From an uncultured Clostridia bacterium (lineage in GTDB: Bacteria; Bacillota; Clostridia; Christensenellales; UBA1242), in NCBI GenBank assembly GCA_947062475.1, contig CAMSQA010000008.1, forward strand, positions 1 through 64,000: DNA of 64,000 bases, in the 5' to 3' direction. Of the stretch, positions 6,317 to 64,000 are shown one piece after another. Position 1 is the stretch's first letter. The number at the start of each line of letters is the position of its first letter. The notes under the pieces were generated by a model, which saw nothing but the letters and a program-made list of their open reading frames with translations, had not been told where the DNA came from and searched no databases. Made by a program: the position numbers and the translations under genes.

Positions 6317-6379
6317 ATTTAACGTTTCTTAAATTGAAATAAAAAGTGCGAATTTCTCGTGCTTTTTTAAATATAGATA

Positions 6380-6408
6380 TTGACTATTTCCATGTTTTGG
6401 TATATAAT
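6380..6408 (+). promoter_or_regulatory. Sigma-A-like promoter for the ankyrin-repeat gene
   Basis: TTGACT-N17-TATAAT. Confidence 0.65.
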
Positions 6409-6432
6409 ATAAAGTATATAGTGGAGGATAAT

Positions 6433-29871: not shown

Positions 29872-29931
29872 AATTTGCTCCTTTAGTATTAAATTGTATT
29901 CTTCACTAATATGTTATATGTGGAGAGAAGT

Positions 29932-43370: not shown

Positions 43371-43934
43371 ATGGAAATAGAAAAAAGAAATGGATTTGTT
43401 GAATTTGTAAAAAAATATGGTATGTTTGTGGTTGTAGGAATTGTTATATTTGCAGTTGCTTTGACATTCACATTGATGGCAACAATTGGGAAGAGCGTGC
43501 CTACAGGAAATACCAATCTTAATTTTAGATTGCCTATGAATGAAGCAAACATTATTAAAGATTTTTCAAATACAGAACTTCAAAATAATGAAACTCTCAA
43601 TCAATGGGAAGCTCACTTGTATGTAGATTTTGCTTCTGAAAATTCTGATGTTTTTGCAGTTCTTGGCGGAACTGTGGCAAGTGTAGAGAATAAATATCTT
43701 GATGGATATACAATTACTATTAAACATGCAAACGGATTTGAGTCTATTTATTCTTCTTTAAATGAAAATATGCTTGTCAAAGCAGGTGACAAAGTTGAAG
43801 CAGGACAAAAGATTGGAACTGCCGACAATACTGCAGAAGGTGAACTTAAAATGGGCTCACATCTTCATTTTGCAATGAAATTGAATAATAATTTTGTAGA
43901 TCCAAACAATTATCTAGATTTGCAGGAAAAATAA
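43371..43934 (+). CDS. M23/LytM metallopeptidase, probable SpoIIQ
   Basis: AHLYVDF (HxxxD) and GSHLHFAMKL (HxH); N-terminal TM; near spoIIID. Confidence 0.8.
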   Translation: MEIEKRNGFVEFVKKYGMFVVVGIVIFAVALTFTLMATIGKSVPTGNTNLNFRLPMNEANIIKDFSNTELQNNETLNQWEAHLYVDFASENSDVFAVLGGTVASVENKYLDGYTITIKHANGFESIYSSLNENMLVKAGDKVEAGQKIGTADNTAEGELKMGSHLHFAMKLNNNFVDPNNYLDLQEK

Positions 43935-45449: not shown

Positions 45450-45497
45450 AAAGTAATATAGCGGCAATTAATTTTGCTTATATATTACTTTTTTTTC
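45450..45497 (+). terminator. Terminator upstream of hflX
   Basis: AAAGTAATATA ... TATATTACTTTTTTTT. Confidence 0.65.
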
Positions 45498-45504
45498 TTT
45501 TTGG

Positions 45505-45533
45505 TTGTGATAAGCGTAAAAATGTGTTATTAT
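45505..45533 (+). promoter_or_regulatory. hflX promoter
   Basis: TTGTGA-N17-TATTAT; 6 nt later is the hflX ATG. Confidence 0.5.
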
Positions 45534-45539
45534 AACACT

Positions 45540-46643
45540 ATGAAAAATAATATAGTGGAAAAAGAAAATGCGGTTGTCATTGTAATTGCAGTTAAAAAAG
45601 AGGACAACATTGAAAGAAAAACAAAGGAGATAAACAAACTTTGTTATTCTGCCGAACTTAATGTAGTTGAAAACTTTTATCAAAAAGTGAAAGATTTCAA
45701 CAAACGCACAGTCATTGGAAGCGGAAAGGTGGAAGAAATTAAGTCATATATTACTTCTTGTGAAGAGATTATCGATGTTGTCATTGTGGATTATCCACTG
45801 ACTGGTTCGCAAATGAAAAATCTCGCAGATGAATTTAAAGTTAAGGTCATTGATAGAGTGGGACTTATCATTGATATTTTTGCACGCGGTGCAAAGTCGA
45901 GAGAGGCAAAGTTGCAGGTTAAACTTGCACAAGACCTTTATGTATTGCCAAGACTTTCACAAATGCAGGGAACAAGCGGAAGGTTTGGAAGTGCGGGTGT
46001 TGGAATGAGAGGGCCTGGCGAGACAAAGCTAGAACTTAATAGACGAATACTTGAGCGTGAAATGGACAACCTTAAAGCCCAAATAGAAAAAATTAAAACT
46101 CAAAGACAATCGACAAGGCGAGAACGATTGAAATCAAATCTGCCAAAGATTGCATTAGTGGGATATACAAACTCAGGTAAGTCCTCACTCTTAAACACTC
46201 TTGTCAAAGAAAACATTTATGCCGATGACAAATTTTTTGCCACCCTTGATACAACCACAAGAAAACTTTATCTTGGGGAGGGAAAATATTCTGTGCTTAC
46301 AGATACAGTTGGTTTCATCTCAGATCTTCCGCATCAACTTGTAGATGCATTCTCTTCAACTTTGGAAGAAGCTGCTGATGCAGACCTATTGCTTCATGTG
46401 GTAGATGTTTCACTTGATAAACTTATTGATGGCAAAAAGGAATATGAAATCAATATGCAGGTCACTGAAAAGCTTCTTGATGAACTTGGAGCTTCGCAAA
46501 ATCGAATTGTCATATTAAATAAATGTGACCTTCTTACTAAACCTATAGAAATTAAGGAAAATCAAATTTTATTATCTGCAAAAAAAGGGCAGGGATTAAA
46601 TCGTCTGCTTGAGATGATAAAGGATAAATTAAACTTGAATTAA
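45540..46643 (+). CDS. hflX: GTPase HflX
   Basis: GRFGSAGVGMRGPGETKLELNRR, ALVGYTNSGKSSLLN, DTVGFISDLPHQLVDAF. ATG 45540; the ORF-track start at 45474 lies upstream of the promoter. Confidence 0.96.
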   Translation: MKNNIVEKENAVVIVIAVKKEDNIERKTKEINKLCYSAELNVVENFYQKVKDFNKRTVIGSGKVEEIKSYITSCEEIIDVVIVDYPLTGSQMKNLADEFKVKVIDRVGLIIDIFARGAKSREAKLQVKLAQDLYVLPRLSQMQGTSGRFGSAGVGMRGPGETKLELNRRILEREMDNLKAQIEKIKTQRQSTRRERLKSNLPKIALVGYTNSGKSSLLNTLVKENIYADDKFFATLDTTTRKLYLGEGKYSVLTDTVGFISDLPHQLVDAFSSTLEEAADADLLLHVVDVSLDKLIDGKKEYEINMQVTEKLLDELGASQNRIVILNKCDLLTKPIEIKENQILLSAKKGQGLNRLLEMIKDKLNLN

Positions 46644-46979: not shown

Positions 46980-47681
46980 ATGGAAAAGTTAAGCAATATT
47001 ATTTCAAAAAAAGTTATTTCACTTGAGTCAGCAAATCAAGTAGGATATGTCGTCAATATGATTTTTGACGAACGAGTAAAATTTTTCACAGGACTCATTA
47101 TTATCGATGATGAAAGTGAAAATTCATTTGTGCTGAAAAGAGAAGATATCTATTCTATCGGTGATGAGACCATCATGATAAAGTCAGAAGATTGTCTTCA
47201 ATATAACATTTCAAGCAATTCAAACAATCCAGTAGGAAAAACTGTTTATGACAGTAACGGAAACTGTTTAGGTGTGGTTTGTGATGTATTTTTAAGTGGT
47301 AAAGTTGTCAAAAAACTTGTCACAACTTTTTGTGAATTTCCTCAGAGGTTTGTGAGAAAATCTGGTGATAATTTTCTTATTTATGGAATTTATAAAAAGG
47401 AAAAAGAGAAAACTTTTAAAGAAAAGGTGGAAGTAGCAAATGCTACAACTTTGCCAAAAGCAACAATTGCACAATCATTGAATAATGATGGGATAAAGCC
47501 TGAAAGCCCAACAAGAATTTTCGTAAATTCAAATCTTTTGTTAAACAAAATTGTAACAAATGAAATTTTAGGGTTTAATAATGAAATAATAGCAAAAAAG
47601 AATGACGTAATAAGTCAAAAAATAATTAATAAAGCAAAGGCACATAATAAATTAAATTTGTTAAATTATTATAGCAAATAA
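46980..47681 (+). CDS. PRC-barrel-like domain protein
   Basis: ISKKVISLESANQVGYVVNMIFDERVKFFTGLIIIDDE. Confidence 0.65.
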   Translation: MEKLSNIISKKVISLESANQVGYVVNMIFDERVKFFTGLIIIDDESENSFVLKREDIYSIGDETIMIKSEDCLQYNISSNSNNPVGKTVYDSNGNCLGVVCDVFLSGKVVKKLVTTFCEFPQRFVRKSGDNFLIYGIYKKEKEKTFKEKVEVANATTLPKATIAQSLNNDGIKPESPTRIFVNSNLLLNKIVTNEILGFNNEIIAKKNDVISQKIINKAKAHNKLNLLNYYSK

Positions 47682-47686
47682 GAGAT

Positions 47687-47722
47687 AAAACAGTGATTTC
47701 AACAAAAAAATCGCTGTTTTTT
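47687..47722 (+). terminator. Rho-independent terminator
   Basis: AAAACAGTGATTT-CAACAAAA-AAATCGCTGTTTTTT. Confidence 0.75.
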
Positions 47723-47961: not shown

Positions 47962-50640
47962 ATGGTTAGAGTTGTTCCTAGAAGAACGAAAGTTAAACTA
48001 GAATTTGTGAGAGGCTTTACAGGTATTGACCTGTTGGTTGCTGTTGTTGCTGTTGCCATTCTCGTTGTGCTTGCTGCTTCAAACTTTCCTGGACATATTT
48101 GGATTGCAATGGTTTGGGCTATTTTTGCTTTGTCACTTTTTTTCAAGATTGCTGATAGTGATAGATTTTATGTGACTATGGTGCATCTTGCAAGATATTC
48201 CATTCAAAAGAAAAAATATGAGAAAGCTCCAAAAAACGGAAAAGCAAACATGAAAGACATTATTCCTTTTGAGTCTATTCATGAAGATAGATTTATTTCT
48301 TATGGAAGTTATTATGCTGGAGTATTGGAAGTAAGTCCTATTCTATTTGGTCTGTTGAATGAATATAGTCAAAACAATGTAATTGATGTTGGTTTTGGAA
48401 ATGCTTTAAGAAGAATTGAAGAATCACAAGTTTGTGAACTTATAAAACTCAACAAAGCAATGGTGCTTGATAATTATGCATATCTTGAAAATAAAAAATA
48501 TGATAGACTTCTCGATCAGCTTTATGAAAAACAAATGTCTCAAAAAGAAATTGATGCAAGAGCTCCTATTTTTGAAGAAAGGGTAAACTTCCTTGAAAAT
48601 AAAAATAGAGAGGAAAAAATCTACAAAGATTTCTTCTATCTAGTTGTTATGGGAAAAGATCTAGATGCACTTGATAATACTTTAAACGGTATGGCAAGCA
48701 ATCTTGCTTCATGTCTGACACCTGTTGCAACAAAAAGATTGACAGGGCCAGATTTGGCTATATTTTTAAAAGCGAATTATAGCAGAGAGTTTAATGAACG
48801 TGATCTTGAAAATATACCTTATGCTGATTATATCAAGTGGGCAACACCTGATACTATTAAATTTTCTTCTGCAAAATACAAGGTGGATGGTGTTGGATAT
48901 AGGACTTTTGCGTTGAATGAATATCCACTTCAAGTAGGAAACGCATGGGGAGCATCTTTCTTTCTTCTTGACAGAACAAAAGTTGTAATGAAATTTCAAA
49001 AAGCACCAAAGTTTGAATCTGAAAAAAAGATTGATAAAGCCATTATGGATATGGAAACAAAGCTTTATAAGACTGGAAAAAGCAGTGCTCGTATTGAAAT
49101 TGAAACACATCTTGAAACTTTAAGAAATCTGCTTCAAGAACTTAAAACATCAAATCAACAGTTGTTTGATGTAAACACTTTTATCACATGCGAAGATGCT
49201 GCAAGAAAGGAAATTAAATCTATGCTAAAGCAAGAAGGATTCCGTTTCACTGAATTGTTTGCCCGCCAAATTGATGCTTTTATCAGCACTGGCGTTTCAA
49301 TGCGTGACAACATTAAAGAGCTTCAAAGAGGAATTCCAACATATACTCTTGCAGGGACTTTCCCTTTCATTTCATCAGAACTTCAAGATGAAGGTGGTGT
49401 TTATATTGGAGACAATGTTTATCCTGTGTTTGTCGATTTCTTTGTAAGAAATTCTCAGAGGGTAAACTCAAACATGATGATTATTGGAAAGTCAGGTTCA
49501 GGTAAGTCTTTCGCGACTAAGACTCTTCTTGCAAACTTTGCAGCCGACAACACAAAGATATTTATTGTAGACCCTGAAAAAGAATATGCAGAACTATCAG
49601 AAAGCTTACATGGAAAGATGATTGACGTAGGATCTTCCTTGCAGGGTATAATCAATCCATTTAATATTATTCGAGCTCTTGATAAAGATGACGATGAAGA
49701 TGAATTAGTCAATGATATTTCTGAAAAAGAAAAAATCAAGAAAGATGATTCATTCAATCAACATCTTCAATTCCTTGAACAGTTTTTTAGAACAATTTTG
49801 CAAGGCATTTCCTCTGATGCATTTGAAATGATTAATACCTTGATTCTTGAAATGTATGAAAGAGCGAATATAAACGAGTATACAGATCTTAAAAAATTGA
49901 AACCAACAGATTATCCAACTTTTGATGATCTTTATAAACTTCTTCAAGAAAAACTTGATGAAGCAAAAGAAGAGTTTGTGCTAAACAATTTGAGAATTGC
50001 CCAAGCATACATTAGAAAGTTTGCAAAGGGTGGTCGAAATTCAAACCTTTGGAATGGACCAACTTCGATTGAAACAAATGAAAATTTCGTATGTTTCAAT
50101 TTCCAATCATTGATCGCTGGAAATAACGAAATGCTTACAAATGCACAAATGCTTTTAGTGTTTAAATACATAGAAAGTGAAGTAATTAATAATAAAGATT
50201 ATAACGAACTTCATGCAACTAATCGAAAGATTATAGTCGTTGTTGATGAAGCACACTTGTTTATCAACCCTCGTTATCCAATCGCATTAAACTTTATGAC
50301 TAGTATGGCAAAACGTATCCGTAAGTATGGCGGAATGCAGATTGTAATTACTCAAAATATCAATGACTTTGTGGGCTCTGAAGAAATTAAGCGTCAATCG
50401 ACTGCGGTCATAAATGCCTGTCAATATTCATTGATTTTCTCCCTTTCACCAAATGACATAAATGACCTTGTTGAACTTTATAAAAACTCAGGCGGAATTA
50501 ATAAAGCAGAGAGAAATAGTATTGTAAGCGCTTCTGTCGGTCAGGCATTTATAATTACATCACCAACTGCAAGAACTATGGTGCAAATTAGACCTTTGCC
50601 TTATGTATTTTCTATCATTGAAAAGAAAAAGAAAAAATAA
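47962..50640 (+). CDS. VirB4/TraE-like ATPase with N-terminal PrgI-like two-TM domain
   Basis: Walker A MMIIGKSGSGKSFATKTLL, Walker B KIIVVVDEAHLFI, PrgI-like TM hairpin followed by ARYSIQKKKY; SD AGAGGTG. Confidence 0.88.
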   Translation: MVRVVPRRTKVKLEFVRGFTGIDLLVAVVAVAILVVLAASNFPGHIWIAMVWAIFALSLFFKIADSDRFYVTMVHLARYSIQKKKYEKAPKNGKANMKDIIPFESIHEDRFISYGSYYAGVLEVSPILFGLLNEYSQNNVIDVGFGNALRRIEESQVCELIKLNKAMVLDNYAYLENKKYDRLLDQLYEKQMSQKEIDARAPIFEERVNFLENKNREEKIYKDFFYLVVMGKDLDALDNTLNGMASNLASCLTPVATKRLTGPDLAIFLKANYSREFNERDLENIPYADYIKWATPDTIKFSSAKYKVDGVGYRTFALNEYPLQVGNAWGASFFLLDRTKVVMKFQKAPKFESEKKIDKAIMDMETKLYKTGKSSARIEIETHLETLRNLLQELKTSNQQLFDVNTFITCEDAARKEIKSMLKQEGFRFTELFARQIDAFISTGVSMRDNIKELQRGIPTYTLAGTFPFISSELQDEGGVYIGDNVYPVFVDFFVRNSQRVNSNMMIIGKSGSGKSFATKTLLANFAADNTKIFIVDPEKEYAELSESLHGKMIDVGSSLQGIINPFNIIRALDKDDDEDELVNDISEKEKIKKDDSFNQHLQFLEQFFRTILQGISSDAFEMINTLILEMYERANINEYTDLKKLKPTDYPTFDDLYKLLQEKLDEAKEEFVLNNLRIAQAYIRKFAKGGRNSNLWNGPTSIETNENFVCFNFQSLIAGNNEMLTNAQMLLVFKYIESEVINNKDYNELHATNRKIIVVVDEAHLFINPRYPIALNFMTSMAKRIRKYGGMQIVITQNINDFVGSEEIKRQSTAVINACQYSLIFSLSPNDINDLVELYKNSGGINKAERNSIVSASVGQAFIITSPTARTMVQIRPLPYVFSIIEKKKKK

Positions 50641-50784
50641 TTTATTGTCAGTCAAAATTTGAGATTTTCTTTAATTTTGGCTTGACAAATAAATTAAACA
50701 ATTTTAATTATTTAATCAATATTTTCGAAAAAAATCAAAAAAACATTGATTTTTCTTAAAAAAAATAAAAAAAAGGATATGTAA

Positions 50785-53700
50785 ATGATAAAATCAAGAA
50801 AACTTAGTATTTTTATATTCAGTTTACTGCTTGTCGTAACAAGTATTATTTTTGCATCCTGTGGCAAACTTGATTACTCAAAAACATATCTTTCTTCATC
50901 AATTGGAGATTATGTATCACTTTATGTAGATGATGAGCAAGAACTTTCAATAACTATACAAAATCCAGTTGATGAAATGAACAGGGGAATTACATTCTCT
51001 CAATCAAATCCTTTGGTTGCAAATATAACACAAATTGCAAATCAAAATAATACAACTTCATATTCAATCGTCGGTCTCTCTGGCGGAAAAACAATTGTTG
51101 ATTTTATTTCTATAGAGGGAAGAAAATCTATATCCATCACAATCGACGTAAAAGAATATTCAGACTTTTTGGAAAAAGGTGAAAATAGTTTATATCTTTC
51201 AAAAACAAAATCATTGCAGCCTACTTCTTCAGATTTTAAATTCAAAGAAAGTTCAACGGAAAGAAATCTTGAATTTTATTTCTATGGAAAGACTTCTGTT
51301 AATGCAACGTTGACAGAAGACGACATTTTATCAAATGATGGATATGTAAACAATTTTGTAAGCGTTGAAATCTTTTCTATTGAAAACAACGATTATCTCA
51401 TCTTTACAGACAAAGATGGGCTTTTGCATACTTTGGGTCATGAGACTATCGTGGCAGGATCAAACAACGTAAGATATGAATTTATTGATGTGACTAAAAC
51501 AGATAATGGATTTTTGTTTGACAATCAAAATGCAACTTCAGTAAATCTTGGAAATGAATTTACATTCATGGCAAAATATTTTAACAGCCAACTTGAAGAA
51601 AGCGAGGGGAATGGTAATATTTTCTGTGAAAGAAAATTCAATGTTTTAAAAAACATAGAAAAAGATGATTTTAGTCATGAATATGGTTATAAAATTGAAG
51701 GTGTTGATTTTGTAGCTGGAAATGAAATGACATCTTATAAAATCGACCAACTTAAAAATGGAAATGTAACTTTAATTCCTCAATATTCAACTATAATTTA
51801 TGATAATCCTATTTTAATAGGAAAGAAAGCAAATTATTTGACAGCTTATTTGCAATTGGAGTTACCTCAAAATGATTTGTTGAATTTTGATTTCAACACA
51901 AGAGATACTTCATTTGCAAATACAACTCTTTTAGATACTTTGCAAAATGGAGACAAAACGACCTATTATTTTGCGGTGAATTGTAGTATTGGGAATGCAA
52001 GACAAACTGTAATAGATTTCAATTTCTGGTATGAAGGCTTTAAAAACAGTAATGATTCAAATGTGAATTTTACATACAGTATTCCAGTTGATATTAGAAT
52101 TATTCCAGTGACATTGCTTATAAACAATATTGATTTTGAGCAGATGAATACTGTCTTTAAGTTTTATGATAGTTACGCCACTGAAAATTCTGGCTGGCAG
52201 GAATTTAATTTTTCTGTTGTGCCTGAGGGTGCTGAATATGATGTTTTAAAAATAGATTTGACCGCATCCAATCTTCAAATAAAATACAAAAATATTGTTT
52301 ATAGAGATATCGTTGTTGAAATTAATGATTTGAAAGAACCTGTGTTTATTAAAGGTGTTGAAAATGCACCATTAACTAATGATGTGAACATGCTTCCTGT
52401 TCAAATGGATTTCAACATTATTCAACAAGACAGTCTTGAGACAAGTATACAATATGAAATTCTTAAAGGTGTAAGAGAATTAAACTTTGAAACTGAAAAC
52501 TTTGAAAATGGTATTGCTCTAGAGCGTTATCAAGATGAAGTGTTGTTTGATGATATTTTTGCTGATGCTGAATTTTATGGAATGAGTTTTGATCTTGAAT
52601 CTGGAAAAGATGTAGTCAGATTTAGATATGAAGATGGAAATGTTTTCAATGTTGAAGGAGATAAATATTATCTTAATATAAATTTGCTTCCTCGAGATGT
52701 TGGTTCTGGCACATATTTAGTCACTCTTGATAATGGTATAAGCACTTATTTGACAGTTGAAGTAAGAGAGGGGCTAAACAGTTTAAGTTTATCTACATCA
52801 AATGAAGATAATTCTGTTAGGTTTAAAGAAGACAAAGAAAATTATTCGATGGTCTATCTATTAAACCGCAATTCTCAATCCTATTTTGACGCAAAAATTA
52901 TTGCAAATGATGACATTAATTCAACAGCAATTATTGATATAGATACAATAAACAATTCATCATCAATTTTTACACGTGTTGGTGAAGATGGGAAATATTT
53001 GATTTATTCATCATTAAGTGGAAGAAATGAACTTATTTTTAATGTGAAAGGATACCAAATATCAAATTTTGTTAAGAGAGAAATAGTTGTTGAATATATC
53101 GTAGACCTCATAACTTATGAACTTGCTGAAGATATGTTTGTTTATAAAGTTTCTGATGCTTTCAATGAAGCATATCCAACACAAACAAATGCTAATTATG
53201 TAAATGTTTATGCAGGAACTAATAATATCGAAATTAAACAGGCAAAATTTGAGGTTGCAATTAAAAATCCAAATGCTTTCCTTTTCCAAAGTCAAAGTCA
53301 AGATGAATTAAGACGTGGATTTGTAGCTGAAACTTTTAAACTAGAATTTTTATATTTTGAAAGCGATAATACAATTTTAAAAGATGGGAAAAGAGTTAAT
53401 AGAATATTCTATTCTCCTTCTCAAAGCAATATCTTTACTATTGCAAATCTCGGAACTTTTGATGCTGAAAAGTTGATTTTTACTTCAATGGGAAGTGGAG
53501 AAGTTAAACTTATTGCTCATATTATGCAATATAATAAGCTTTATTCTTTTCCTATAAATATAAACATACTTCCATATGAAGAAGTGCAGAAAGTCACTCT
53601 TCAAGATACTGTTGATTCACTTGAATTTTCTGCTTTTAAGAGCGAACGCAGTTTGATCGCATACCCAACAAATCCTACTGCAACCAATAGTCAGTTGGTT

Positions 53701-56700
53701 GCTCTCATTGAAGGGGGACAGATAAGTAGAAATAAACAAATTTATAAAGTGCTTGACAAAAATTCGGTTAAATATATCGAAAGTGATGGAAAAACGCATA
53801 TTACCTTTAAAGTCAATGATGACTTTTTAAAGGCTGTAGTGACCTCAGATGAAGACACAAAAGAAGATGAAGTAATTGTAGGAAACATTCTCATAGTCGC
53901 AAAAGACTGGCTTGATGCAAATGGTGAATTAAGAAGTGGATACACAGAATATGCTTCTATAAGATTTGAATTTACCAAAGGCACAGAAAGCAGCAGATAT
54001 ATTATTGAAAATGCTGATGATTTAAATATGGTTCGAAAAAATCTTTCGTCTCATTTTAAAATTAAAACTACAATTGATATCTCAAATGTTTCTCTGCCAT
54101 TAGGCGAGCTTAAAGGTTCTATTATAGGAACAAGCGAATATGCTGAATTAACAGGACTTAACATTTCTGAAGCAGGAACAATAGGAAATGACAGCGTCTC
54201 TTATTATGGTCTTTTCACATCAATTGCTGATGGCGGATATTTGGAATATGTTAAATTTAGCGGTAAGTTTTCAATTAAAACGGACAAAAACTCATATATA
54301 GGATTTGTTGCTGGAATTAATAATGGTCGTTTGACAAATATTGGTGCTTCCATTTCAGCTTCAAGTATTTCTGTTTCAGAAGAATGTAATGTTTATTTTG
54401 GTGGCTTGGTTGGAGAAAACAATGGTTTAATAATCCAAGATTTTACCAAATTTGAAAAAGGTGACTTTAAGGGACTTAGCCCAAATATTGTAATGATGAA
54501 TGATTTTGTTGACATTAATTATGCTTTGAGTGGCAGATTTGAAAGAAGTATTGGCGGAGTTGTTGGCATAAATAATGGAGAAATTAGAAAAATAGATAGT
54601 GATAAATTGACATTTAGTGGTTATTCCAATTATATGGTTTATGCACGTATCAAAACTTCTTATAATGGTGACATTAATCAAGGACAAAATTATCAAGTCC
54701 ATGTTGGTGCACTAGCAGGACAAAATAAGAAGGGAAGATATCAACAAAATAAATTTGAATCAAAGATAATTGGTGGATATAAGAATGAGAATGACGAATT
54801 TGTTGCTTATCTTCAATATTCAGAAACGGGCTCAGGTTTCAAGGCAGGAAAAGGTATTATTGTAGGCGGTGAAATTTGGGGGCATGGCTATGTTGGTGGT
54901 GTTGTCGGCAAAAATGACGAAACTTCTTTAAACAATTTCTGTGGAATAACAGCTAGAACTTTTGTTCGTGGATATAATGTGTTTGATGGAGATCACTCTC
55001 AACTGACTTTACTTTCATATCTGAGTTCGTCGGAGGATTTTATCACCGAAACTGAAAATTCAGCATATGCAATACAGGCTGTTGACGATGGAAAAGTATT
55101 AGAAGAAAGTGCAATGGCTGTTTTGTATAGCAGTGAAGAGCTTAGCAGTAATTTTACATTAAATAATCTTGGTTTTGGTTCTAAAATTGGAAATCAAATT
55201 TCTGTTTTAAGTAATACAAATGTTTTATCTTATATAAATAGAAACTATCTGCAAAAGCCTGATGAAAATTCTGAATTTTTTATTTCAAATTCAAACAGAG
55301 CAAACTATTATGGTGATTTTGTTATTGTGGGAGAAAGTAGTAGCTCTCGTCAAAAAATTTTAATTCATCAAGAAAAATTTGGAAAAGGAAATCTAGATGA
55401 TTTATCAATTGAACAAAGATTTAATAATCTTCTTGTAAGTGAAAAAGGTAGTTCACAAATATTCTATACTTATTATTTTGATGTTGCTTCTGTTATAGGT
55501 GACGATATCGCAAGCTTGCAAGCACAAATTGATTTAGAGCTAAATAGACATACTTCAACAAGCAATTTTTATCCATTTGTTGCAAAAGGTGAGATGACAT
55601 TTGTTTCAAAATCACCTGACATTTTGACTATTGATCAAATGGGGAAAATTACAGTAAATGGCACAGGTCGTGCATTAATAATTGCATCAAGTATATTAAA
55701 TTCAAATGAATCCTTAAATTTCTATATCTATGTTGTAAATTATTTCAATTCTGAAGCATTAGAAGAAAATAATGAAAACAAAACATCGGTGGTTTATCCA
55801 ACTATATCTTCGACCTTAGCTATCAATAAGTCCACTATTGAACTTCGTGGAAATAATTCGACTTTGCTTTATGTAATTCCAAATTATCAGGCAAATATAA
55901 AGATTGATCAGGAGTCAAGTTTTGTATCTGATGATAGAGGTTTTGCTAGTTTTAAAAATGTTCATTTCTATCTTGCACAAAATACTGATTTGACGGCAAG
56001 TGTCAAGATATATAAAAATGAAAGTGAATTTTATGAAGAAAACGATAATCCGCTTGATGTGAGTGTTGTAGGTCAAATTATCACTATTCGCAGAAAAGAT
56101 ACAACTGAAGAAAATAATTATAATCTTTACATTCAAACTATTTTAAGACAAGTTGTGGATGGCGATATTTATACAATTTCGACAAATAAAACATTGAAAG
56201 AAGCTGTTGTTGACTACAAATTTGGTGCTTTAAGTCTGTTAAATAAAAATTATAACGATGTTCCTATTAGGACAAGCGGAATGGTCGCTGATGAAATTAC
56301 CTTGATTTCAACTGATGAAAATGAAGGTGAAGAAGATTTGCTTTATTATGTTATCGGTCTTGATGACAAACATTTGCAGGGGAACATTGATACAGATAAA
56401 ATAATGTATCAGCTCAGCGGTGAAGAAGAATTGTTTATTGTCAAATTTATCAAAACTTCATCCAAAGATTTGGGGAACGGAACATTCGAGCATAAATTTA
56501 GATTAGAAATAAGCATCAACACTGGTTGTCAGCTTTATAAAGATAGATATGAAAAAGAAATTTATGGTAAATATATTTTTCATATTCGTTCATCAAGTAA
56601 TTCTGCAATTTCAAGAAATATTGAAATATTTTTTGAAAAGACAGGCGTGCAATCAATTGTAATTGACAATTATACTTCGCTTAGTGAAAATCAATCGGGT

Positions 56701-59700
56701 TTGACAACTTCTTCAGAACTTGCTTATCCAGGTGAGGCGGGCATGCTCATTTTGACAATAAAGCCTTCAGACAGTGATTTTGATTTTATCATGATTGAAA
56801 ATGATGCAGAAAACTTTAATAATAATCGTGCAGTTGCTTCGTTTAGTTTGCTTGCAAGAGTTGACGGACAAACGGTAAAAATGTTTGACGAAGATATTAT
56901 TGCTGGTGCAACTATAGGAAACGGATATAGAATTACATTACAAGAAATTATTGATGCTTATGCAAAAAAAGATAATTACAAAAATTATGATGGTGTGATT
57001 TATATCAAATATAATTTGAGTTCAAGTGGTGTAAGCGATTTAAGCAAGACTAAAATCAATGTTTCTGTATGGAAAGACGGATCATCTTATTATACATCTA
57101 GCAAGGATTTGACTGTTAAATTGCAAAATTATGTTGCTGTTGAAATTGACGGAAAAGAACCTATATCTACAAATCAAAATGGGATTTATCAAACTTATGA
57201 AGTTGCTCGTGGTTTGAAATATAAGCTTAACATAAATTCTTATGGTTTTAGACAGGATAATATAAGCATTACTTCTAATAATTCTATAGGAAAGGTGACT
57301 TTTGAAAATGGTGATTATTATCTCAATATCACTGATGGTACAATAGATTATGCTTCAGCAAATAATGAGATTATTCTTACAACAAAGGCTATTCAAAATG
57401 ATGGCGATACTCTGAGAAGTGCTGAAAGTAAAACAAAAGTAATTGTTTTTGAGTATGTATTTAATTATAATAATGAACTTGATAGAAATTCTGATATAGT
57501 TAAAGGAATGGGAGAGGGCATTATTAATGTTCAAGTAGGTTCAAAACTCACACTTGGACTGGATATATATGACTATATTGAATATAATTCGTCCATAAGT
57601 GGAGTCAGAAATAAAATAGAAGAATTTATTTCTGAACTTGAAAGAGTGGGCAAATGGGAAGCTGTAACAAATCTCATTTCAGATAATCAACCTGACTATA
57701 AAATGGCAGGTTCAACTACTGAACCAAGAAAAAAATATCAAATTGGATTTGATTCAAATAATGTAATCATGAATCACAGCAACTATTATTTCAATTCTGA
57801 AGGACTTAATATAATTCCTAAGAGAACTCACCAGCCTGTTGAAAAATTCTACTATTTTGATTTTACTGTATCATATGATACTTCAAACGGAGTGTATGTA
57901 GTTAAGGCTGGAAATGAGCAAGATAGTGCAAGGAAGATTGAGACAACTTTTATTTTCAATGTTTATTCTTCAAGCAGTGAAGAAAGTCCAATTCCTATCT
58001 ATACTTATTCTGATCTTTTAAATATGCAAAGTGGTGGCTATTATATATTGTTGAATGATATTACACTTCCTTCTGTAAGCGAAGAAGGTGGCGCTAAAGC
58101 ATTCTCGCCTTTAAATGGTAATTTTGCTTCATTTGATGGAAATGGACATGCAATCAATTTTGCGGGTGTTTATGATATGGGAAATCTTAGTGAAATTGGT
58201 CTTTTCCATACTCTAAATGCCCAGTCAATTGTAAAGAACCTTGTTGTAAATTATACAACATTAAATGATGGCTCTGATCTTAATACTGACATAAATGATT
58301 CCGTTTATGCTTTGTATGGACTTAAAACCGTTAAATTTATCACAACCGCTGATAGCTTTGTGTTTGGCACTATAGCTGCACAAAACTTGGGTATCATTTC
58401 AAACTGTAGAGTTTATTCTGACGTATTGTCAGAAGATAAATTCTATCTTGCAGTCAAAGCAGATAATGCAATAACAAACAATAGTTATGTTGGCGGTCTT
58501 GTGGGGTATAACAGTGGATTTATTACAAACTGCGGTGTAAGTATCAATGCAAAAGTTCCATTCAATCTTGCAGGACTTGTTGCACAAAACAATGGTAAAA
58601 TCGCTGGTTGTTATTTCGAAAAAGGCATACTTTTAAACAATTCTCAATATGACCAACATATTGGGGGAATTGCAATCACAAATTCGGCTGAAGGTCAGAT
58701 TATTACAAGTTATGTTTCAGGAAGACAAACGAATACAAATCTTTTCAGTAAAGATAATCAGAGTCAGATTTCTTCTACTCTTGCTGGGGCAGGTTTTGTT
58801 TATAACAATGCAGGTCTTATCAAAGATTGTTATTCTGATATTGATCTGTCAAAAACATCATCTGATATGGCAGGTTTTGTGTTTAGAAATGGTGGCACTA
58901 TCAGAAATTCCTTCTCTCTTTCTATTCTAAGAAGCAATACAACAGCGTCTGCTGGTTTTGCAAAGGAAAACATATATGAAGGAAGTCAAGGCGTTTTTGA
59001 AAATTGTTATTATTTATATAATTTAGAGGCTGCAGATAATTTATCAGAAGCCGAAAAAGATAAATTAACCAAAGAGGGTCATTATATGATTGGAGAAAAC
59101 AACGTCAATATCAACGTTTCACTTTATGATGTGACTTTTGATGGTGTTATGAGATTGACTCAAGGACAATTTGCCGATGTTGAGACTTACTTTAAACATT
59201 ATTCATATGATGAAAATGTAAGCACTAAAGCTGTTTGGTTCTTCTCTCAGGGCTTTACTTCAGAGACATATATTGATTATATACCAACAACTGAAAAGAT
59301 TATTTTGCCAGGTGACGAGGGCAATAGTCAAAGCAATACTGTTTATAGAGAAGAGCTTATGACATTTGGTTTAAATAGACTTTCTCTTGTTTCTCCAAAT
59401 GTGAGAGCTCTTTCAGTGCGAAATTTTGATCGATCAGAAGTTGACGAAGTCACTGAAAATATTACTTATTTTTACACGGATGACATGAATTCTCCTTCAA
59501 GAGGATCTATTCATAATCCAAGACTTATTTATAATTCTAATACAATGGAAAATGAAATATTAAATCAGACTACTTCAAACAATCTCAATATGACAAATTA
59601 TCGTTTGATAAGTGATGTTAGTTATGTCGATTTTAATAGACATTCAAATCTGTTTACCGTAATTTATGCAGGCAATTTTGAAGGCAATGGAATGGAAATT

Positions 59701-61713
59701 TCAAGTATAGGTCTTGTTTATATGCAAAGCCGCACAAATGGTGGATTGTTCTCACAAATAGGTTATTCCGCAAGTAGAACAGGATCGGTTAAAAATCTTA
59801 CAATTTCACCAAAAGAGGTTGTATTCAATAATACAAATAATGTTGGAACTTTGGCAGGAACGCTTAAATATGGTTATATTTATGACATAACAATTGATGC
59901 TCGTAGTAATAATTTGACTTCTGTTGCAGGTCTCAACTTTGTTGGAGGTGTGATTGGGAAAGCTGTGAGTGCTTTCGAGGCAAAAGATATTTACAGCAAT
60001 GCAGATATATGGTCTGTTTATACTCCATCAAATGATGCAACATATATTGAAAACTCTTCAAATGATAGTGGGCATTCCTATGCTGGAGGGTTGATCGGCT
60101 TTGTAGGAAAAGGAAAAGTTCACAACGCTCATGTTTATGATGTTTCGACTATCACGGGCAGCAAAGTTGGTTTGGCTTTTGGTGGCATTGGAAATGGTGC
60201 TAATGTTGAATATGTATTCCCAATTGTCACAAAAAATCTTAAACTGAGATCAAATATGTATGCTGGTTATGTTGTTGGTGAACAATCTGGAAATTTAAGC
60301 TATGCTCACATTCCTGATAATGGTGCAGTTGAATATTCTTTTGTTGGTGCACCAAAATCGCCTCTTGCTGTTGGTGGTATTGCTGGTAAGTTTAGCGGCG
60401 GAAGAATATCAAACGTTTCAAATGAGCAAGATTTCAGTTTGATTATAGATGATAATCAAGAAGCTGTTGAAAATGTAGGTGGCATAATTGGCGTTGTCAA
60501 TGCAGAAGCTGGCAGACTGTCAGTGCTGGAAGATAGTGTTTTAAGTGCAAATATTATTGGTGCAATAAATTTAGGAGGGGCTGTAGGAACAGTTCATTCA
60601 GCTTTAAGAATAGATGGTGTTGCAGTCAAATCTGAAAGACTTTCTTTAAGAGGACGACAGGAAAATCCAAAACTTGGCGGAATTGTCGCTTTTGTTCGCG
60701 ACAATATAAATTCGTCAATAGAAATAAGAAATAGTTATTGCACTGCAAATCTTGATATTGAAACTTATACTATGGGAATAAGCTCAACTGCCCATGCTGG
60801 TGGTCTTATCGCATTCTCAGCGAAAATTCCTGCTCTTTCTTATTGCTATACTACATCCATTGTTCAAGCACAAGTTTATGATGTAAGGGCACTTGGAAGC
60901 AATCAAGACTTTGGTGAAATTTTCAGCGATGATAATGAGGGAAATACAGACCAAAACAATAGAAACTTATATTCTTATGGGCATATTATCACCAAAAATG
61001 CATACAATGTTGATCAAATTTATTATGATAATGTTTATTATTTTGGTTCAAGTGTTTCTGGAAATGACGCCGATAACAATCCTGTATACAAAGCAAATAA
61101 ATCATTTGCTCAATTTAAATCGAGAGCAAAAAATGCAAAGATGAGCTTTAATCTAAACAACTATGGAATGTCATCAATTGAATATATTCAAATGTTAGGC
61201 TTAGAAGTTTCAGATACAACGATTGATAGATTAAATAATTTATATGGTAACATTTATCAAATAAAACAAAACTTTGATGGCCAAGAAAGTGATTATCCAA
61301 CAGAAATTGGTGTAGGGACAGAACTGCATTATAATACTTCAAAAGATTTATTTACTACTGGCAAGGATGGAGTGAGGATTATACGAAATACAAATACTAC
61401 TGAAAGTTATATTTACACGCAAGTAAATAAAGATACTGAAGAAGATGATAAGATTTGGACTATGACTATCACTAAAAATTTGCTTCAAAATATTTTATTC
61501 AAAGGTAGTGATAAAGAAAGTTATCGTTATACTGTAAATGTAAGTGAAGATAAAACCGAAATTGGATATCTAAGAGTAAAAGATAATGTATTTATTAAAG
61601 AAAGTGAATTTGATAAAATGAATATATCTTTGCATGAAGTATGGAAAACAAGTTTTAATTCGTTGACCACACTCTATATTGAAGATGATTTTAATTGGAC
61701 AAATAAACTTTAA
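50785..61713 (+). CDS. Giant (3642 aa) secreted lipoprotein with Big2-like and GLUG/beta-helix modules
   Basis: Lipobox IIFASCGK; GLUG motifs (GGLVGYNSGFITNCGV, GGVVGINNGEIRKI, AGLVAQNNGKIAGCYF); Big2-like VSKSPDILTIDQMGKITVNGTGRALIIASS. Confidence 0.9.
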   Translation: MIKSRKLSIFIFSLLLVVTSIIFASCGKLDYSKTYLSSSIGDYVSLYVDDEQELSITIQNPVDEMNRGITFSQSNPLVANITQIANQNNTTSYSIVGLSGGKTIVDFISIEGRKSISITIDVKEYSDFLEKGENSLYLSKTKSLQPTSSDFKFKESSTERNLEFYFYGKTSVNATLTEDDILSNDGYVNNFVSVEIFSIENNDYLIFTDKDGLLHTLGHETIVAGSNNVRYEFIDVTKTDNGFLFDNQNATSVNLGNEFTFMAKYFNSQLEESEGNGNIFCERKFNVLKNIEKDDFSHEYGYKIEGVDFVAGNEMTSYKIDQLKNGNVTLIPQYSTIIYDNPILIGKKANYLTAYLQLELPQNDLLNFDFNTRDTSFANTTLLDTLQNGDKTTYYFAVNCSIGNARQTVIDFNFWYEGFKNSNDSNVNFTYSIPVDIRIIPVTLLINNIDFEQMNTVFKFYDSYATENSGWQEFNFSVVPEGAEYDVLKIDLTASNLQIKYKNIVYRDIVVEINDLKEPVFIKGVENAPLTNDVNMLPVQMDFNIIQQDSLETSIQYEILKGVRELNFETENFENGIALERYQDEVLFDDIFADAEFYGMSFDLESGKDVVRFRYEDGNVFNVEGDKYYLNINLLPRDVGSGTYLVTLDNGISTYLTVEVREGLNSLSLSTSNEDNSVRFKEDKENYSMVYLLNRNSQSYFDAKIIANDDINSTAIIDIDTINNSSSIFTRVGEDGKYLIYSSLSGRNELIFNVKGYQISNFVKREIVVEYIVDLITYELAEDMFVYKVSDAFNEAYPTQTNANYVNVYAGTNNIEIKQAKFEVAIKNPNAFLFQSQSQDELRRGFVAETFKLEFLYFESDNTILKDGKRVNRIFYSPSQSNIFTIANLGTFDAEKLIFTSMGSGEVKLIAHIMQYNKLYSFPININILPYEEVQKVTLQDTVDSLEFSAFKSERSLIAYPTNPTATNSQLVALIEGGQISRNKQIYKVLDKNSVKYIESDGKTHITFKVNDDFLKAVVTSDEDTKEDEVIVGNILIVAKDWLDANGELRSGYTEYASIRFEFTKGTESSRYIIENADDLNMVRKNLSSHFKIKTTIDISNVSLPLGELKGSIIGTSEYAELTGLNISEAGTIGNDSVSYYGLFTSIADGGYLEYVKFSGKFSIKTDKNSYIGFVAGINNGRLTNIGASISASSISVSEECNVYFGGLVGENNGLIIQDFTKFEKGDFKGLSPNIVMMNDFVDINYALSGRFERSIGGVVGINNGEIRKIDSDKLTFSGYSNYMVYARIKTSYNGDINQGQNYQVHVGALAGQNKKGRYQQNKFESKIIGGYKNENDEFVAYLQYSETGSGFKAGKGIIVGGEIWGHGYVGGVVGKNDETSLNNFCGITARTFVRGYNVFDGDHSQLTLLSYLSSSEDFITETENSAYAIQAVDDGKVLEESAMAVLYSSEELSSNFTLNNLGFGSKIGNQISVLSNTNVLSYINRNYLQKPDENSEFFISNSNRANYYGDFVIVGESSSSRQKILIHQEKFGKGNLDDLSIEQRFNNLLVSEKGSSQIFYTYYFDVASVIGDDIASLQAQIDLELNRHTSTSNFYPFVAKGEMTFVSKSPDILTIDQMGKITVNGTGRALIIASSILNSNESLNFYIYVVNYFNSEALEENNENKTSVVYPTISSTLAINKSTIELRGNNSTLLYVIPNYQANIKIDQESSFVSDDRGFASFKNVHFYLAQNTDLTASVKIYKNESEFYEENDNPLDVSVVGQIITIRRKDTTEENNYNLYIQTILRQVVDGDIYTISTNKTLKEAVVDYKFGALSLLNKNYNDVPIRTSGMVADEITLISTDENEGEEDLLYYVIGLDDKHLQGNIDTDKIMYQLSGEEELFIVKFIKTSSKDLGNGTFEHKFRLEISINTGCQLYKDRYEKEIYGKYIFHIRSSSNSAISRNIEIFFEKTGVQSIVIDNYTSLSENQSGLTTSSELAYPGEAGMLILTIKPSDSDFDFIMIENDAENFNNNRAVASFSLLARVDGQTVKMFDEDIIAGATIGNGYRITLQEIIDAYAKKDNYKNYDGVIYIKYNLSSSGVSDLSKTKINVSVWKDGSSYYTSSKDLTVKLQNYVAVEIDGKEPISTNQNGIYQTYEVARGLKYKLNINSYGFRQDNISITSNNSIGKVTFENGDYYLNITDGTIDYASANNEIILTTKAIQNDGDTLRSAESKTKVIVFEYVFNYNNELDRNSDIVKGMGEGIINVQVGSKLTLGLDIYDYIEYNSSISGVRNKIEEFISELERVGKWEAVTNLISDNQPDYKMAGSTTEPRKKYQIGFDSNNVIMNHSNYYFNSEGLNIIPKRTHQPVEKFYYFDFTVSYDTSNGVYVVKAGNEQDSARKIETTFIFNVYSSSSEESPIPIYTYSDLLNMQSGGYYILLNDITLPSVSEEGGAKAFSPLNGNFASFDGNGHAINFAGVYDMGNLSEIGLFHTLNAQSIVKNLVVNYTTLNDGSDLNTDINDSVYALYGLKTVKFITTADSFVFGTIAAQNLGIISNCRVYSDVLSEDKFYLAVKADNAITNNSYVGGLVGYNSGFITNCGVSINAKVPFNLAGLVAQNNGKIAGCYFEKGILLNNSQYDQHIGGIAITNSAEGQIITSYVSGRQTNTNLFSKDNQSQISSTLAGAGFVYNNAGLIKDCYSDIDLSKTSSDMAGFVFRNGGTIRNSFSLSILRSNTTASAGFAKENIYEGSQGVFENCYYLYNLEAADNLSEAEKDKLTKEGHYMIGENNVNINVSLYDVTFDGVMRLTQGQFADVETYFKHYSYDENVSTKAVWFFSQGFTSETYIDYIPTTEKIILPGDEGNSQSNTVYREELMTFGLNRLSLVSPNVRALSVRNFDRSEVDEVTENITYFYTDDMNSPSRGSIHNPRLIYNSNTMENEILNQTTSNNLNMTNYRLISDVSYVDFNRHSNLFTVIYAGNFEGNGMEISSIGLVYMQSRTNGGLFSQIGYSASRTGSVKNLTISPKEVVFNNTNNVGTLAGTLKYGYIYDITIDARSNNLTSVAGLNFVGGVIGKAVSAFEAKDIYSNADIWSVYTPSNDATYIENSSNDSGHSYAGGLIGFVGKGKVHNAHVYDVSTITGSKVGLAFGGIGNGANVEYVFPIVTKNLKLRSNMYAGYVVGEQSGNLSYAHIPDNGAVEYSFVGAPKSPLAVGGIAGKFSGGRISNVSNEQDFSLIIDDNQEAVENVGGIIGVVNAEAGRLSVLEDSVLSANIIGAINLGGAVGTVHSALRIDGVAVKSERLSLRGRQENPKLGGIVAFVRDNINSSIEIRNSYCTANLDIETYTMGISSTAHAGGLIAFSAKIPALSYCYTTSIVQAQVYDVRALGSNQDFGEIFSDDNEGNTDQNNRNLYSYGHIITKNAYNVDQIYYDNVYYFGSSVSGNDADNNPVYKANKSFAQFKSRAKNAKMSFNLNNYGMSSIEYIQMLGLEVSDTTIDRLNNLYGNIYQIKQNFDGQESDYPTEIGVGTELHYNTSKDLFTTGKDGVRIIRNTNTTESYIYTQVNKDTEEDDKIWTMTITKNLLQNILFKGSDKESYRYTVNVSEDKTEIGYLRVKDNVFIKESEFDKMNISLHEVWKTSFNSLTTLYIEDDFNWTNKL

Positions 61714-62026: not shown

Positions 62027-64000
62027 ATGTCTGTTAATGTAAGAAAAGTTAAACAAGGCAAAGTAGAGAGAATGACTTTTGGTCAATGTGAAGAACTTAT
62101 CAAAGTCCCACCACTTCTCGAAATTCAAAAAAAGTCATATAAAGACTTTTTAACGAAGGGCATCAAGAAAACTCTTGATGAATTTTTCCCTGTTACAGAT
62201 TATTCAGGCAAGGCAAAATTGTATATTACTGAAATTTTACCTTTTCAAGAGCCTACTTATGATGTGAAGGAGTGCAAAAGAAGAAGTGCAACTTATTCTT
62301 CACCATTAAAAGTAAAGGCACGTTTTGTTGTTGAAGAAACTGGACAAGCGGTTGAACAAGAAGTATTCATGGGTGATGTGCCAATGATGACCGATCAAGG
62401 CTCTTTTATCTTCAATGGTATTGAGAGAGTTGTCATCAATCAAATTGTCAGAGCACCAAGTGTTTATCTTACAAGAGAAAAAGAAAATAATGCCACACTT
62501 AAAGCACAAATAATTCCTGTTCATGGAAACTGGATTGAAATCAAGCAGGGCGCTAATGAAAACTTAAAGATTGTTTTAGAACGTAAAAGTGTAATCAGTC
62601 TTGGTGTATTTTTAAAATGCTTTGGCTTCTCTAATGAAGAAATCATTAGACTTTTTGGTGACAATCGATATATCAAATATGTAATCGATAAAGAAACTCA
62701 AACAACACAAGAGGAATGTTTACTTGAATTTTCAAGAAAAACTAGACCTACGGACGTTCCTTCAGTTGAAAGCACTAGAAGCTTCTTAAATGCATCTTTC
62801 TTTACTGATGCTTATTATAATCTTTCTAAAGTTGGAAGATATAAGGTCAATAAAAAGCTTGCTCTTAGAGAGCGTCTTCCAGGACTTATCAATGCCGATA
62901 ATATTGTTTCAGAAGGTGAAATTCTAGTTAAAGCAGGAGAGGAGTTTACAGCAAAAACTGCCGATCTTATTCAAAATGCAGGCATAAATGAAGTTTGGAT
63001 TCAATTTAATGGCAAACGTCACCTTATTAGAGGAAACAATCGTGTTACTCTCTCAAAAGTTCTTGACTGCAACCAAGAAGAACTTGGTATTTTTGAGGAT
63101 GTTTATTATCCTGTTCTTAAACAAATTTTGGCTGAAGCATCTTCAAAAGAAGAAGCACTCAAAATAATAAAAGAAAATGCAAAAGATCTTGTCATCACAA
63201 CACTTACAATGGATGATATTTTGGCAACTGTTTCTGCATATCTTGATGTGCTTGAAGGATTTGCTGGAATAGATAAAATCGAGCATCTTTCAAATAAACG
63301 CGTTGCAACTGTTGGAGAACTTACTTGCAATGCATTTAGAACAGGCGTGACAAAACTCTCTGTAAATGTAAAAGAAACTTTGCAAGGACGTGAATTTGTT
63401 GAAGTTACACCTTCACAAATTATGAATCCAAAAGCTGTGAATAAAGCTCTTCGTGATTTCTTCTCTCAATCACAGTTGTCGCAAATCATGGATCAAAAGA
63501 ATCCTCTTTCTGGAATTACTCAGAAACGTCGTGTTTCTGCGATTGGACCTGGAGGTATAAAAAAGGAGAGAGCCGATCCTGAAATTCGTGATATTCACTT
63601 CACTCATTATGGCAGAATTTGTCCTATTGAAACTCCTGAAGGTCAATCAATTGGTCTTTTAAACACTCTTGCCACTTATGTAAGAATAAATGATTATGGC
63701 TTCCTTGAAACTCCTTATAGAGTAGTTGATAAAGAAAGAGGAGTTGTGACAAATGATGTTGTTTATAAAATGGCTGATGTTGAAAATGAAAGCTATATCG
63801 CACAGGCAATTGAGCCTTTAGATGAAGAAGGTCATTTCATAAACTCTCATATTATTTGCCGTCATGGTTCAACAAATATCGATGTTCCAGCAAGCAAAGT
63901 TGATTTTATGGATGTTTCTCCAAAACAACTTGTTTCTGTTGCTACAAGTTTAATTCCTTTTGTTGGCAGTGATGAAGCAAACCGTGCACTTATGGGTGCA
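62027..64000 (+). CDS. rpoB: DNA-directed RNA polymerase beta subunit (5' part, open at window end)
   Basis: MSVNVRKVKQGKVERMTFGQCEELIKVPPLLEIQKKSYKDFL..., DQGSFIFNGIERVVINQIVRAPSVYL; SD AAGGAG. Confidence 0.98.
   Translation, partial: MSVNVRKVKQGKVERMTFGQCEELIKVPPLLEIQKKSYKDFLTKGIKKTLDEFFPVTDYSGKAKLYITEILPFQEPTYDVKECKRRSATYSSPLKVKARFVVEETGQAVEQEVFMGDVPMMTDQGSFIFNGIERVVINQIVRAPSVYLTREKENNATLKAQIIPVHGNWIEIKQGANENLKIVLERKSVISLGVFLKCFGFSNEEIIRLFGDNRYIKYVIDKETQTTQEECLLEFSRKTRPTDVPSVESTRSFLNASFFTDAYYNLSKVGRYKVNKKLALRERLPGLINADNIVSEGEILVKAGEEFTAKTADLIQNAGINEVWIQFNGKRHLIRGNNRVTLSKVLDCNQEELGIFEDVYYPVLKQILAEASSKEEALKIIKENAKDLVITTLTMDDILATVSAYLDVLEGFAGIDKIEHLSNKRVATVGELTCNAFRTGVTKLSVNVKETLQGREFVEVTPSQIMNPKAVNKALRDFFSQSQLSQIMDQKNPLSGITQKRRVSAIGPGGIKKERADPEIRDIHFTHYGRICPIETPEGQSIGLLNTLATYVRINDYGFLETPYRVVDKERGVVTNDVVYKMADVENESYIAQAIEPLDEEGHFINSHIICRHGSTNIDVPASKVDFMDVSPKQLVSVATSLIPFVGSDEANRALMGA

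What the first reader, a model, noticed from the sequence alone, without database searches (positions are those of the whole stretch)
47962..61713. Orphan PrgI-VirB4 ATPase next to a 3642-aa lipoprotein: candidate uncharacterised export/assembly system
The ATPase is a full-length VirB4/TraE type with intact Walker A and B and a fused PrgI-like membrane hairpin, yet the window has no VirB6, VirD4, relaxase, integrase or other mobile genes; neighbours are housekeeping (hflX, rpoB). Immediately downstream, same strand, is a 10.9-kb lipoprotein gene. An adapted T4SS-derived motor serving a giant surface protein would be novel, but the link is based only on adjacency.
Basis: partly seen in the sequence, partly recalled or inferred. 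Interest (0 to 1): 0.7.

Follow-up and report, generated by a model that had tools for sequence, protein, structure and literature searches.

The report
Domesticated conjugation-type secretion machine with giant adhesin
A motor protein that looked like an orphan belongs to a DNA/protein-transfer machine whose genes are scattered around the chromosome and kept by nearly every member of a family of tiny-genome gut Clostridia; in this one genus the motor gene always sits beside a giant surface lipoprotein that probably helps it grip other cells.

Summary
An intact VirB4-type ATPase (47962-50640) is followed on the same strand by a 3642-aa lipoprotein gene (50785-61713), between hflX/PRC and rpoB, with no mobile genes in the window. 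"Orphan" is wrong. The same 1.05-Mb genome encodes VirD4, VirB6 and two VirB2-like pilins at three unlinked chromosomal loci. VirB4 and VirD4 occur in 112 and 115 of 118 sampled genomes, and in all 42 genera, of the family. VirB4 is under strong purifying selection (dN/dS 0.014-0.05) and core copies form one clade, next to ICE-borne copies. Early-branching genera keep a compact cluster (VirD4 / VirB2-lipoprotein-VirB6-VirB4); it was dispersed later. The relaxase family tested (PF03432) is absent. This is a domesticated Mycoplasma-ICE-type T4SS, much like that of Patescibacteria. The giant protein adjoins VirB4 in 65/65 genus loci but was not found in the family's other 41 genera, so it is not this ATPase's obligatory cargo. 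It carries an export lipobox, and two segments modelled with high confidence are an Ig-like stalk and a GLUG region. Its most likely role is a lineage-specific contact adhesin for the machine. That link is inferred: the flanking PRC and rpoB genes are equally syntenic. Substrate unknown.

The parts
47962..50640 (+). VirB4-type ATPase (892 aa from this ATG) with N-terminal two-TM (PrgI/VirB3-like) hairpin; Mbov_0397/MPF-FATA relative
   Evidence: (PDB 4ag5)
50785..61713 (+). Giant surface lipoprotein (3642 aa): signal peptide plus lipobox, Ig-like N-terminal stalk, GLUG motif region
47687..47720 (+). Terminator-like hairpin between the PRC gene and virB4 (13 pairs, followed by T-rich DNA); suggests virB4 begins a new transcription unit. 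No terminator-like site in the virB4-giant gap
   Evidence: consensus scan only
46980..47681 (+). PRC-barrel protein, conserved upstream neighbour (61/61 genus loci); housekeeping context
45474..46643 (+). hflX GTPase; its distances correlate with those of VirB4 (r=0.905), indicating vertical inheritance
62027..64000 (+). rpoB (continues beyond the window), conserved downstream neighbour of the giant gene (11 of 11 loci with sequence there)

Best explanation
The ATPase is the VirB4 motor of a minimal, relaxase-less type IV secretion system (VirD4, two VirB2-like pilins, VirB6, VirB3-like/VirB4) that was captured once from a Mycoplasma-ICE-like conjugative element by the ancestor of this family of small-genome Clostridia. 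It was fixed as core genome and, in the lineage leading to this genus, broken up over four chromosomal loci. The giant protein is exported by its own lipoprotein signal, is anchored in the membrane, and reaches outward with an Ig-like stalk and a GLUG region. It most likely acts as the lineage-specific contact adhesin of that machine, as CDS14 does in mycoplasma ICEs and PrgB in enterococcal pCF10. After contact, VirB4 and VirD4 power transfer of a macromolecule, most likely protein, between this cell and a neighbour. Shown: parts, conservation, purifying selection, vertical inheritance, modelled folds. Inferred: assembly of the four loci into one machine, the adhesin role, substrate and direction.
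For: VirB4 in 112/118 genomes and 42/42 genera of the family; VirD4 in 115/118 and 42/42. Against this, VirB4 occurs in only 29 of about 319 other genomes drawn from the order. In the window genome: VirD4 at G000:C1:60627-62111 (T4SS-DNA_transf 118 bits), VirB6 at C3:71282-72493 (NF045848 73 bits), pilins at C7:63689-64386 (NF045849 48.8 bits, cut-off 40) (places). Walker motifs of VirD4 are intact in nearly all genus copies inspected. Core VirB4s form one clade (SH-aLRT 99), next to a clade of mobile copies (96) that includes ICEs of congeners. Sister genera keep a compact cluster VirD4 <- / -> VirB2-lipoprotein-VirB6-VirB4 between housekeeping genes. VirB4 dN/dS 0.014-0.05; VirB4-HflX distance correlation 0.905, Mantel 0/2000. 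Relaxase PF03432 absent from the genome and from nearly all congeners. Giant: 65/65 downstream of VirB4, gap mostly under 60 bp, colinear in 13 full-length orthologues with lipoboxes. AlphaFold models at pLDDT 92; Ig-like matches include PrgB 8beg among many Ig strings. Literature: CDS14 lipoprotein essential for mycoplasma ICE transfer (PMC6030558); PrgB (PMC10588982).
Against: Dispersed genes have not been shown to form one complex. PRC and rpoB are as firmly syntenic as the giant gene, so adjacency may be plain synteny. Very long ORFs are not unusual in these genomes (12,732, 8,422 and 6,345 aa frames), which weakens the specificity of the pairing. NF045975 score lies just under its cut-off. 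VirB6 was weak or missing in 3 congeners (G006, G028, G031), and VirB4 was missing in G036 and in 6 of 118 family genomes. No VirB8 or VirB1 was identified. Only one relaxase family was tested genome-wide. A protein substrate is a guess.
Confidence: 0.55

Rival explanations
1. The T4SS is core as described, but the giant lipoprotein has nothing to do with it. It is an unrelated surface or S-layer-like protein that happens to lie between virB4 and rpoB.
For: PRC-virB4-giant-rpoB is conserved as a block, so the pairing is no tighter than that with housekeeping genes. The giant is detected only in this genus while VirB4 is family-wide. Other very long ORFs exist in these genomes.
Against: Short gaps, 8-60 bp in most species, suggest co-transcription. 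Lipoproteins also sit inside the intact clusters of sister genera, and large secreted proteins inside related ICEs. No terminator-like site in the gap.
Confidence: 0.35
2. The system is a working conjugation machine that exchanges chromosomal DNA between cells, using an unrecognised relaxase.
For: VirD4 coupling protein is intact and family-wide. The nearest relatives are ICE transfer genes. Mycoplasma ICEs of this type transfer DNA (PMC6030558).
Against: No PF03432 relaxase in this genome. No integrase or replication genes beside the core loci. Sister genera lack them too.
Confidence: 0.2
3. The ATPase alone, without a T4SS, was adapted to export or assemble the giant lipoprotein.
For: Invariant adjacency in the genus.
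Against: T4SS partners are present. VirB4 is conserved in 41 genera in which the giant was not detected. The giant has an N-terminal lipoprotein signal in the orthologues read from the true start.
Confidence: 0.04
4. Decaying remnant of an integrated conjugative element.
For: ICEs with a 42-43% identical VirB4 occur in congeners.
Against: dN/dS 0.014-0.05, 42/42 genera, separate clade, vertical signal.
Confidence: 0.01

Closest known systems
Mycoplasma/Spiroplasma ICE transfer module (Mbov_0395 pilin, Mbov_0396 VirB6, Mbov_0397 VirB4, Mbov_0399), MPF-FATA type
   Same: Same VirB4, VirB6, VirB2 and VirD4 families by NCBIfam; cluster order pilin-VirB6-VirB4-large protein is alike in M. hyopneumoniae; a surface lipoprotein (CDS14) is required for contact (PMC6030558)
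   Different: Here chromosomal, family-wide, dispersed, under purifying selection, no transposase or integrase alongside; only 28-31% identity to Mollicutes VirB4; the giant lipoprotein showed no match to any family model beyond GLUG
Chromosomal T4SS of Patescibacteria (PMC12102498)
   Same: Relaxase-less, chromosomal VirB4/VirB6/VirB2/T4CP set of monoderm conjugation origin, retained in reduced genomes; thought to be repurposed for host dependence
   Different: Different lineage (Clostridia); VirB3-like hairpin fused to VirB4 here, whereas no VirB3-VirB4 fusion was found there; genus-specific giant lipoprotein
PrgB and other conjugation adhesins (pCF10; pLS20 adhesin; IncHI Ig-like proteins)
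   Same: Surface proteins with Ig-like domains that serve mating contact of a T4SS (PMC10588982, PMC8092201, PMC6764697)
   Different: No sequence homology shown; fold similarity is generic Ig strings (8beg TM 0.18); lipoprotein anchor; adds a GLUG region
Dispersed T4SS of Rickettsia
   Same: T4SS genes scattered over the chromosome and vertically kept (mentioned in PMC12102498)
   Different: Diderm VirB/D4 type; not compared here

Membership tests
Minimal T4SS, MPF-FATA / Mycoplasma-ICE type | VirB4 ATPase with intact Walker A/B, aligned end to end | tested here: met
Minimal T4SS, MPF-FATA / Mycoplasma-ICE type | Equivalog cut-off of NF045975 (Mbov_0397) | tested here: not met
   581.8 against 590 bits: same superfamily, not the narrow equivalog
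Minimal T4SS, MPF-FATA / Mycoplasma-ICE type | VirB3/PrgI-like component | tested here: inconclusive
   Two-TM hairpin at the VirB4 N-terminus; no PrgI Pfam match
Minimal T4SS, MPF-FATA / Mycoplasma-ICE type | VirB6 polytopic channel protein in the same genome | tested here: met
   867-aa ORF L156:9073-11676, NF045848 73 bits, E 2e-20, though under the cut-off of 90
Minimal T4SS, MPF-FATA / Mycoplasma-ICE type | VirB2-like pilin in the same genome | tested here: met
   two tandem proteins, one above the NF045849 cut-off, one above the PF18895 cut-off
Minimal T4SS, MPF-FATA / Mycoplasma-ICE type | VirD4 coupling ATPase in the same genome | tested here: met
   L155:8475-10487, PF02534 118 bits, Walker motifs intact
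Minimal T4SS, MPF-FATA / Mycoplasma-ICE type | VirB8 and VirB1-type components | not tested
   no profile searched genome-wide; the M23 peptidase at 43371-43934 is most like SpoIIQ
Integrative conjugative element | Relaxase | tested here: not met
   PF03432 absent from the genome; other MOB families not searched
Integrative conjugative element | Patchy distribution and mobility | tested here: not met
   42/42 genera; distances track HflX
Integrative conjugative element | Integrase/recombinase beside the transfer genes | tested here: not met
   none recognised among the ORFs around the core loci read; not searched genome-wide
Patescibacterial T4SS | Falls in the patescibacterial VirB4 clade | not tested
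   no patescibacterial sequences placed in the tree
Gram-positive conjugation adhesin (PrgB-like) | Surface-anchored, Ig-like stalk | tested here: met
   lipobox and AlphaFold model of residues 27-560
Gram-positive conjugation adhesin (PrgB-like) | Sequence homology to PrgB | tested here: not met
   profiles of two segments found no PrgB in PDB sequences; no Pfam adhesin domain

The most novel reading that the evidence does not exclude
A whole family of ultra-small-genome Clostridia lives in obligate contact with other microbes, in convergence with Patescibacteria, using a domesticated T4SS to exchange macromolecules with the partner, while each genus supplies its own large surface protein (here a 3.4-3.9-thousand-residue Ig/GLUG lipoprotein) as the gripping device.
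Probability: 0.25. Interest if true: 0.85.

Novelty: new variant of a known kind. Interest (0 to 1): 0.62.

Why it matters
Retention of VirB4 and VirD4 by essentially every member of a family with 0.8-1.3 Mb genomes implies an important, probably lifestyle-defining function. It gives a second, independent case, besides Patescibacteria, in which a monoderm conjugation machine has become core equipment of genome-reduced bacteria. It also provides natural comparisons: intact clusters against dispersed genes, and genera with and without the giant lipoprotein. These make the question of what relaxase-less T4SSs do in reduced genomes testable in animal-gut Firmicutes.

Tried and rejected
(1) ICE remnant: rejected on conservation, dN/dS and tree. 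(2) Orphan motor: rejected after the genome-wide partner searches. (3) Search of the own genome with PF19597 TrbL_4 found nothing, but the control search rang nowhere either, so it was uninformative; NF045848 was used instead. (4) Giant as a Pfam-known adhesin: no whole-protein match; only GLUG above its cut-off in a sub-segment. (5) Fold of the GLUG region: matches are weak and partial (PL6 lyase, IgA1 protease, tailspikes), so no enzymatic role is proposed. (6) The pilin-like hit at G000:C1:127706 (19.5 bits) was judged chance. (7) Large cytosolic ORFs downstream of VirB4 in sister genera were tested as a single conserved substrate family: they fall into several families unrelated by sequence, so they remain only candidate substrates. 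(8) Promoter matches near virB4 are no more frequent than in shuffles. (10) No open-access paper on a T4SS in this clostridial lineage was found.

Full report
1. Observation. The window carries a VirB4-type ATPase at 47962-50640 and, 144 bases further on the same strand, a 3642-codon ORF at 50785-61713. VirB4 matches TraG_P-loop (71 bits) and aligns end to end with the Mycoplasma-ICE VirB4 model NF045975 at 581.8 bits, just under that model's cut-off of 590. Its solved relative is Thermoanaerobacter VirB4, 4ag5. The flanks are hflX, a PRC-barrel gene and rpoB. No mobile-element gene was seen in the window.

2. Not an orphan. The host genome is 1.05 Mb in 20 contigs, 97.7% complete. In it I found two tandem VirB2-like pilins on contig C7, a VirB6-like 867-aa membrane protein on C3 and a VirD4 coupling protein on C1. 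The VirD4 keeps Walker A (GTTGVGKT) and Walker B (LDEFGN). All lie among housekeeping genes (ksgA and tatD for VirB6, for instance; identified from sequence). The same parts recur in congeners: VirB4 in nearly all 37 genus genomes (G036 has only a weak 31% match); a VirD4 hit in all, though for G014 only a weak one that lies in its VirB4; pilins in nearly all, with only weak hits in G012 and G024. VirB6 was strong in most, missing in G028 and only weak in G006 and G031.

3. Family-wide core. In an even draw of 118 genomes of the family, VirB4 was found in 112 and in all 42 genera, VirD4 in 115 and all 42 genera. In an even draw of the order, only 29 of about 319 genomes outside the family have such a VirB4, at 28-44% identity. 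Those read by neighbourhood sit in ICE-like operons with VirD4, a large secreted protein, a pilin, VirB6 and, in some, integrases.

4. Origin and history. In a tree of 48 VirB4s, all family core copies form one group (SH-aLRT 99). Next to it is a group of mobile copies (96) that includes ICEs living in the same genus; Mollicutes copies lie further out (quick method, long outgroup branches). Early-branching genera keep a compact chromosomal cluster: VirD4 divergent from VirB2(s), a lipoprotein, VirB6 and VirB4, often followed by a large cytosolic protein (L212-L214, L216-L218, L080-L082). In genera g29 and g31 VirB4 stands beside ribosomal protein genes, or other housekeeping genes, with one 594-673-aa cytosolic ORF behind it. 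In the window's genus it stands between PRC and rpoB with the giant gene. So the simplest reading is one capture, then dispersal. Distances of VirB4 track those of HflX over 48 loci (r=0.905; Mantel 0/2000), and VirB4 dN/dS is 0.014-0.05, as low as or lower than that of HflX.

5. The giant lipoprotein. It follows VirB4 in 65 of 65 genus loci that have sequence there, and PRC precedes it in 61 of 61; the gap is mostly 8-60 bases. Thirteen full-length orthologues (3382-3872 aa) are colinear and carry lipoboxes where the true start is read. It evolves faster than VirB4 but still under constraint (dN/dS 0.07-0.23). With its first 1100 residues as query it was found in 5 of 5 genus members and 0 of 113 genomes of other genera; a very divergent homologue elsewhere is not excluded. 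AlphaFold models of residues 27-560 (pLDDT 92.4) show an all-beta string of Ig-like domains; Foldseek matches include ICAM-5, titin, S-layer proteins and the PrgB conjugation adhesin, all at low TM-scores. Residues 2380-3120 (pLDDT 92.0) form an all-beta region with GLUG motifs, with weak, partial matches to IgA1-protease fragments and PL6 lyases.

6. Mechanism. Shown: the parts, their family-wide retention, intact motifs, vertical inheritance, and an exported surface lipoprotein. Inferred: that VirB2, VirB4, VirB6 and VirD4 assemble into one envelope channel, that the giant lipoprotein provides contact, and that the substrate is protein. Precedents: a surface lipoprotein (CDS14) is essential for transfer of a mycoplasma ICE and can act from either partner cell (PMC6030558); PrgB serves mating contact of pCF10 (PMC10588982); relaxase-less chromosomal T4SSs of monoderm origin are common in Patescibacteria, essential for epibiotic growth in the one case tested, and proposed to import or export macromolecules (PMC12102498). 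No PF03432 relaxase is present here, which disfavours plain conjugation but does not exclude it.

7. Limits. The adjacency that prompted the finding is no stronger than that of PRC and rpoB. Very long ORFs are not rare in the group. Genomes are MAGs, so single absences mean little. The GTDB name of the family could not be read from the tools; records are titled 'uncultured Clostridia bacterium', two 'uncultured Christensenella sp.'.

Noticed in passing
L156:12343-15411 (G000:C3): 1022-aa secreted protein with C-terminal TM and a transglutaminase-like domain directly downstream of the VirB6 gene; resembles the MAG6410 mycoplasma lipoprotein family (44.7 bits, far below the cut-off).
   Followed up: partly
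G005, G010, G015, G020 (L159), G022, G025, G032: One subclade of the genus carries three tandem, diverged VirB6-like genes instead of one.
   Followed up: no
G029:C1:27264, G036:C12:25834, G036:C43:3669: Open frames of 12,732, 6,345 and 8,422 aa: extremely long proteins occur in this genus.
   Followed up: no
L226:12080-16471, L227:1330-5569, L229:1370-4574: In other families, tandem cytosolic proteins lie behind a related (mobile-clade) VirB4. They differ in length but share a region of about 80 residues; possibly substrates with a common docking module.
   Followed up: partly
L215:12447-14468, L219:9887-11728, L220:11136-12920, L221:11875-13803: In genera g29/g31 VirB4 sits beside ribosomal protein or other housekeeping genes, together with one homologous cytosolic ORF (594-673 aa) without any family match; it moved along with VirB4.
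   Followed up: partly
L241 (Mesomycoplasma hyopneumoniae NZ_LR214993.1): Pilin-VirB6-VirB4-Mbov_0399 cluster flanked by dprA, rpsT and aspS, i.e. also in a housekeeping context and without other ICE genes nearby.
   Followed up: no
window 18560-19951, 29911-31479, 43371-43934: GerC-like, SpoVB-like and SpoIIQ-like genes in a 1.05-Mb genome.
   Followed up: no
window 6346-8238: Protein with a weak partial match to the Legionella effector AnkG (43 bits against a cut-off of 500), presumably ankyrin-like repeats; no evidence that it is an effector.
   Followed up: no
L079:12703-22691: The giant gene is split into 363- and 2999-aa frames in one MAG; assembly error or frameshift.
   Followed up: no
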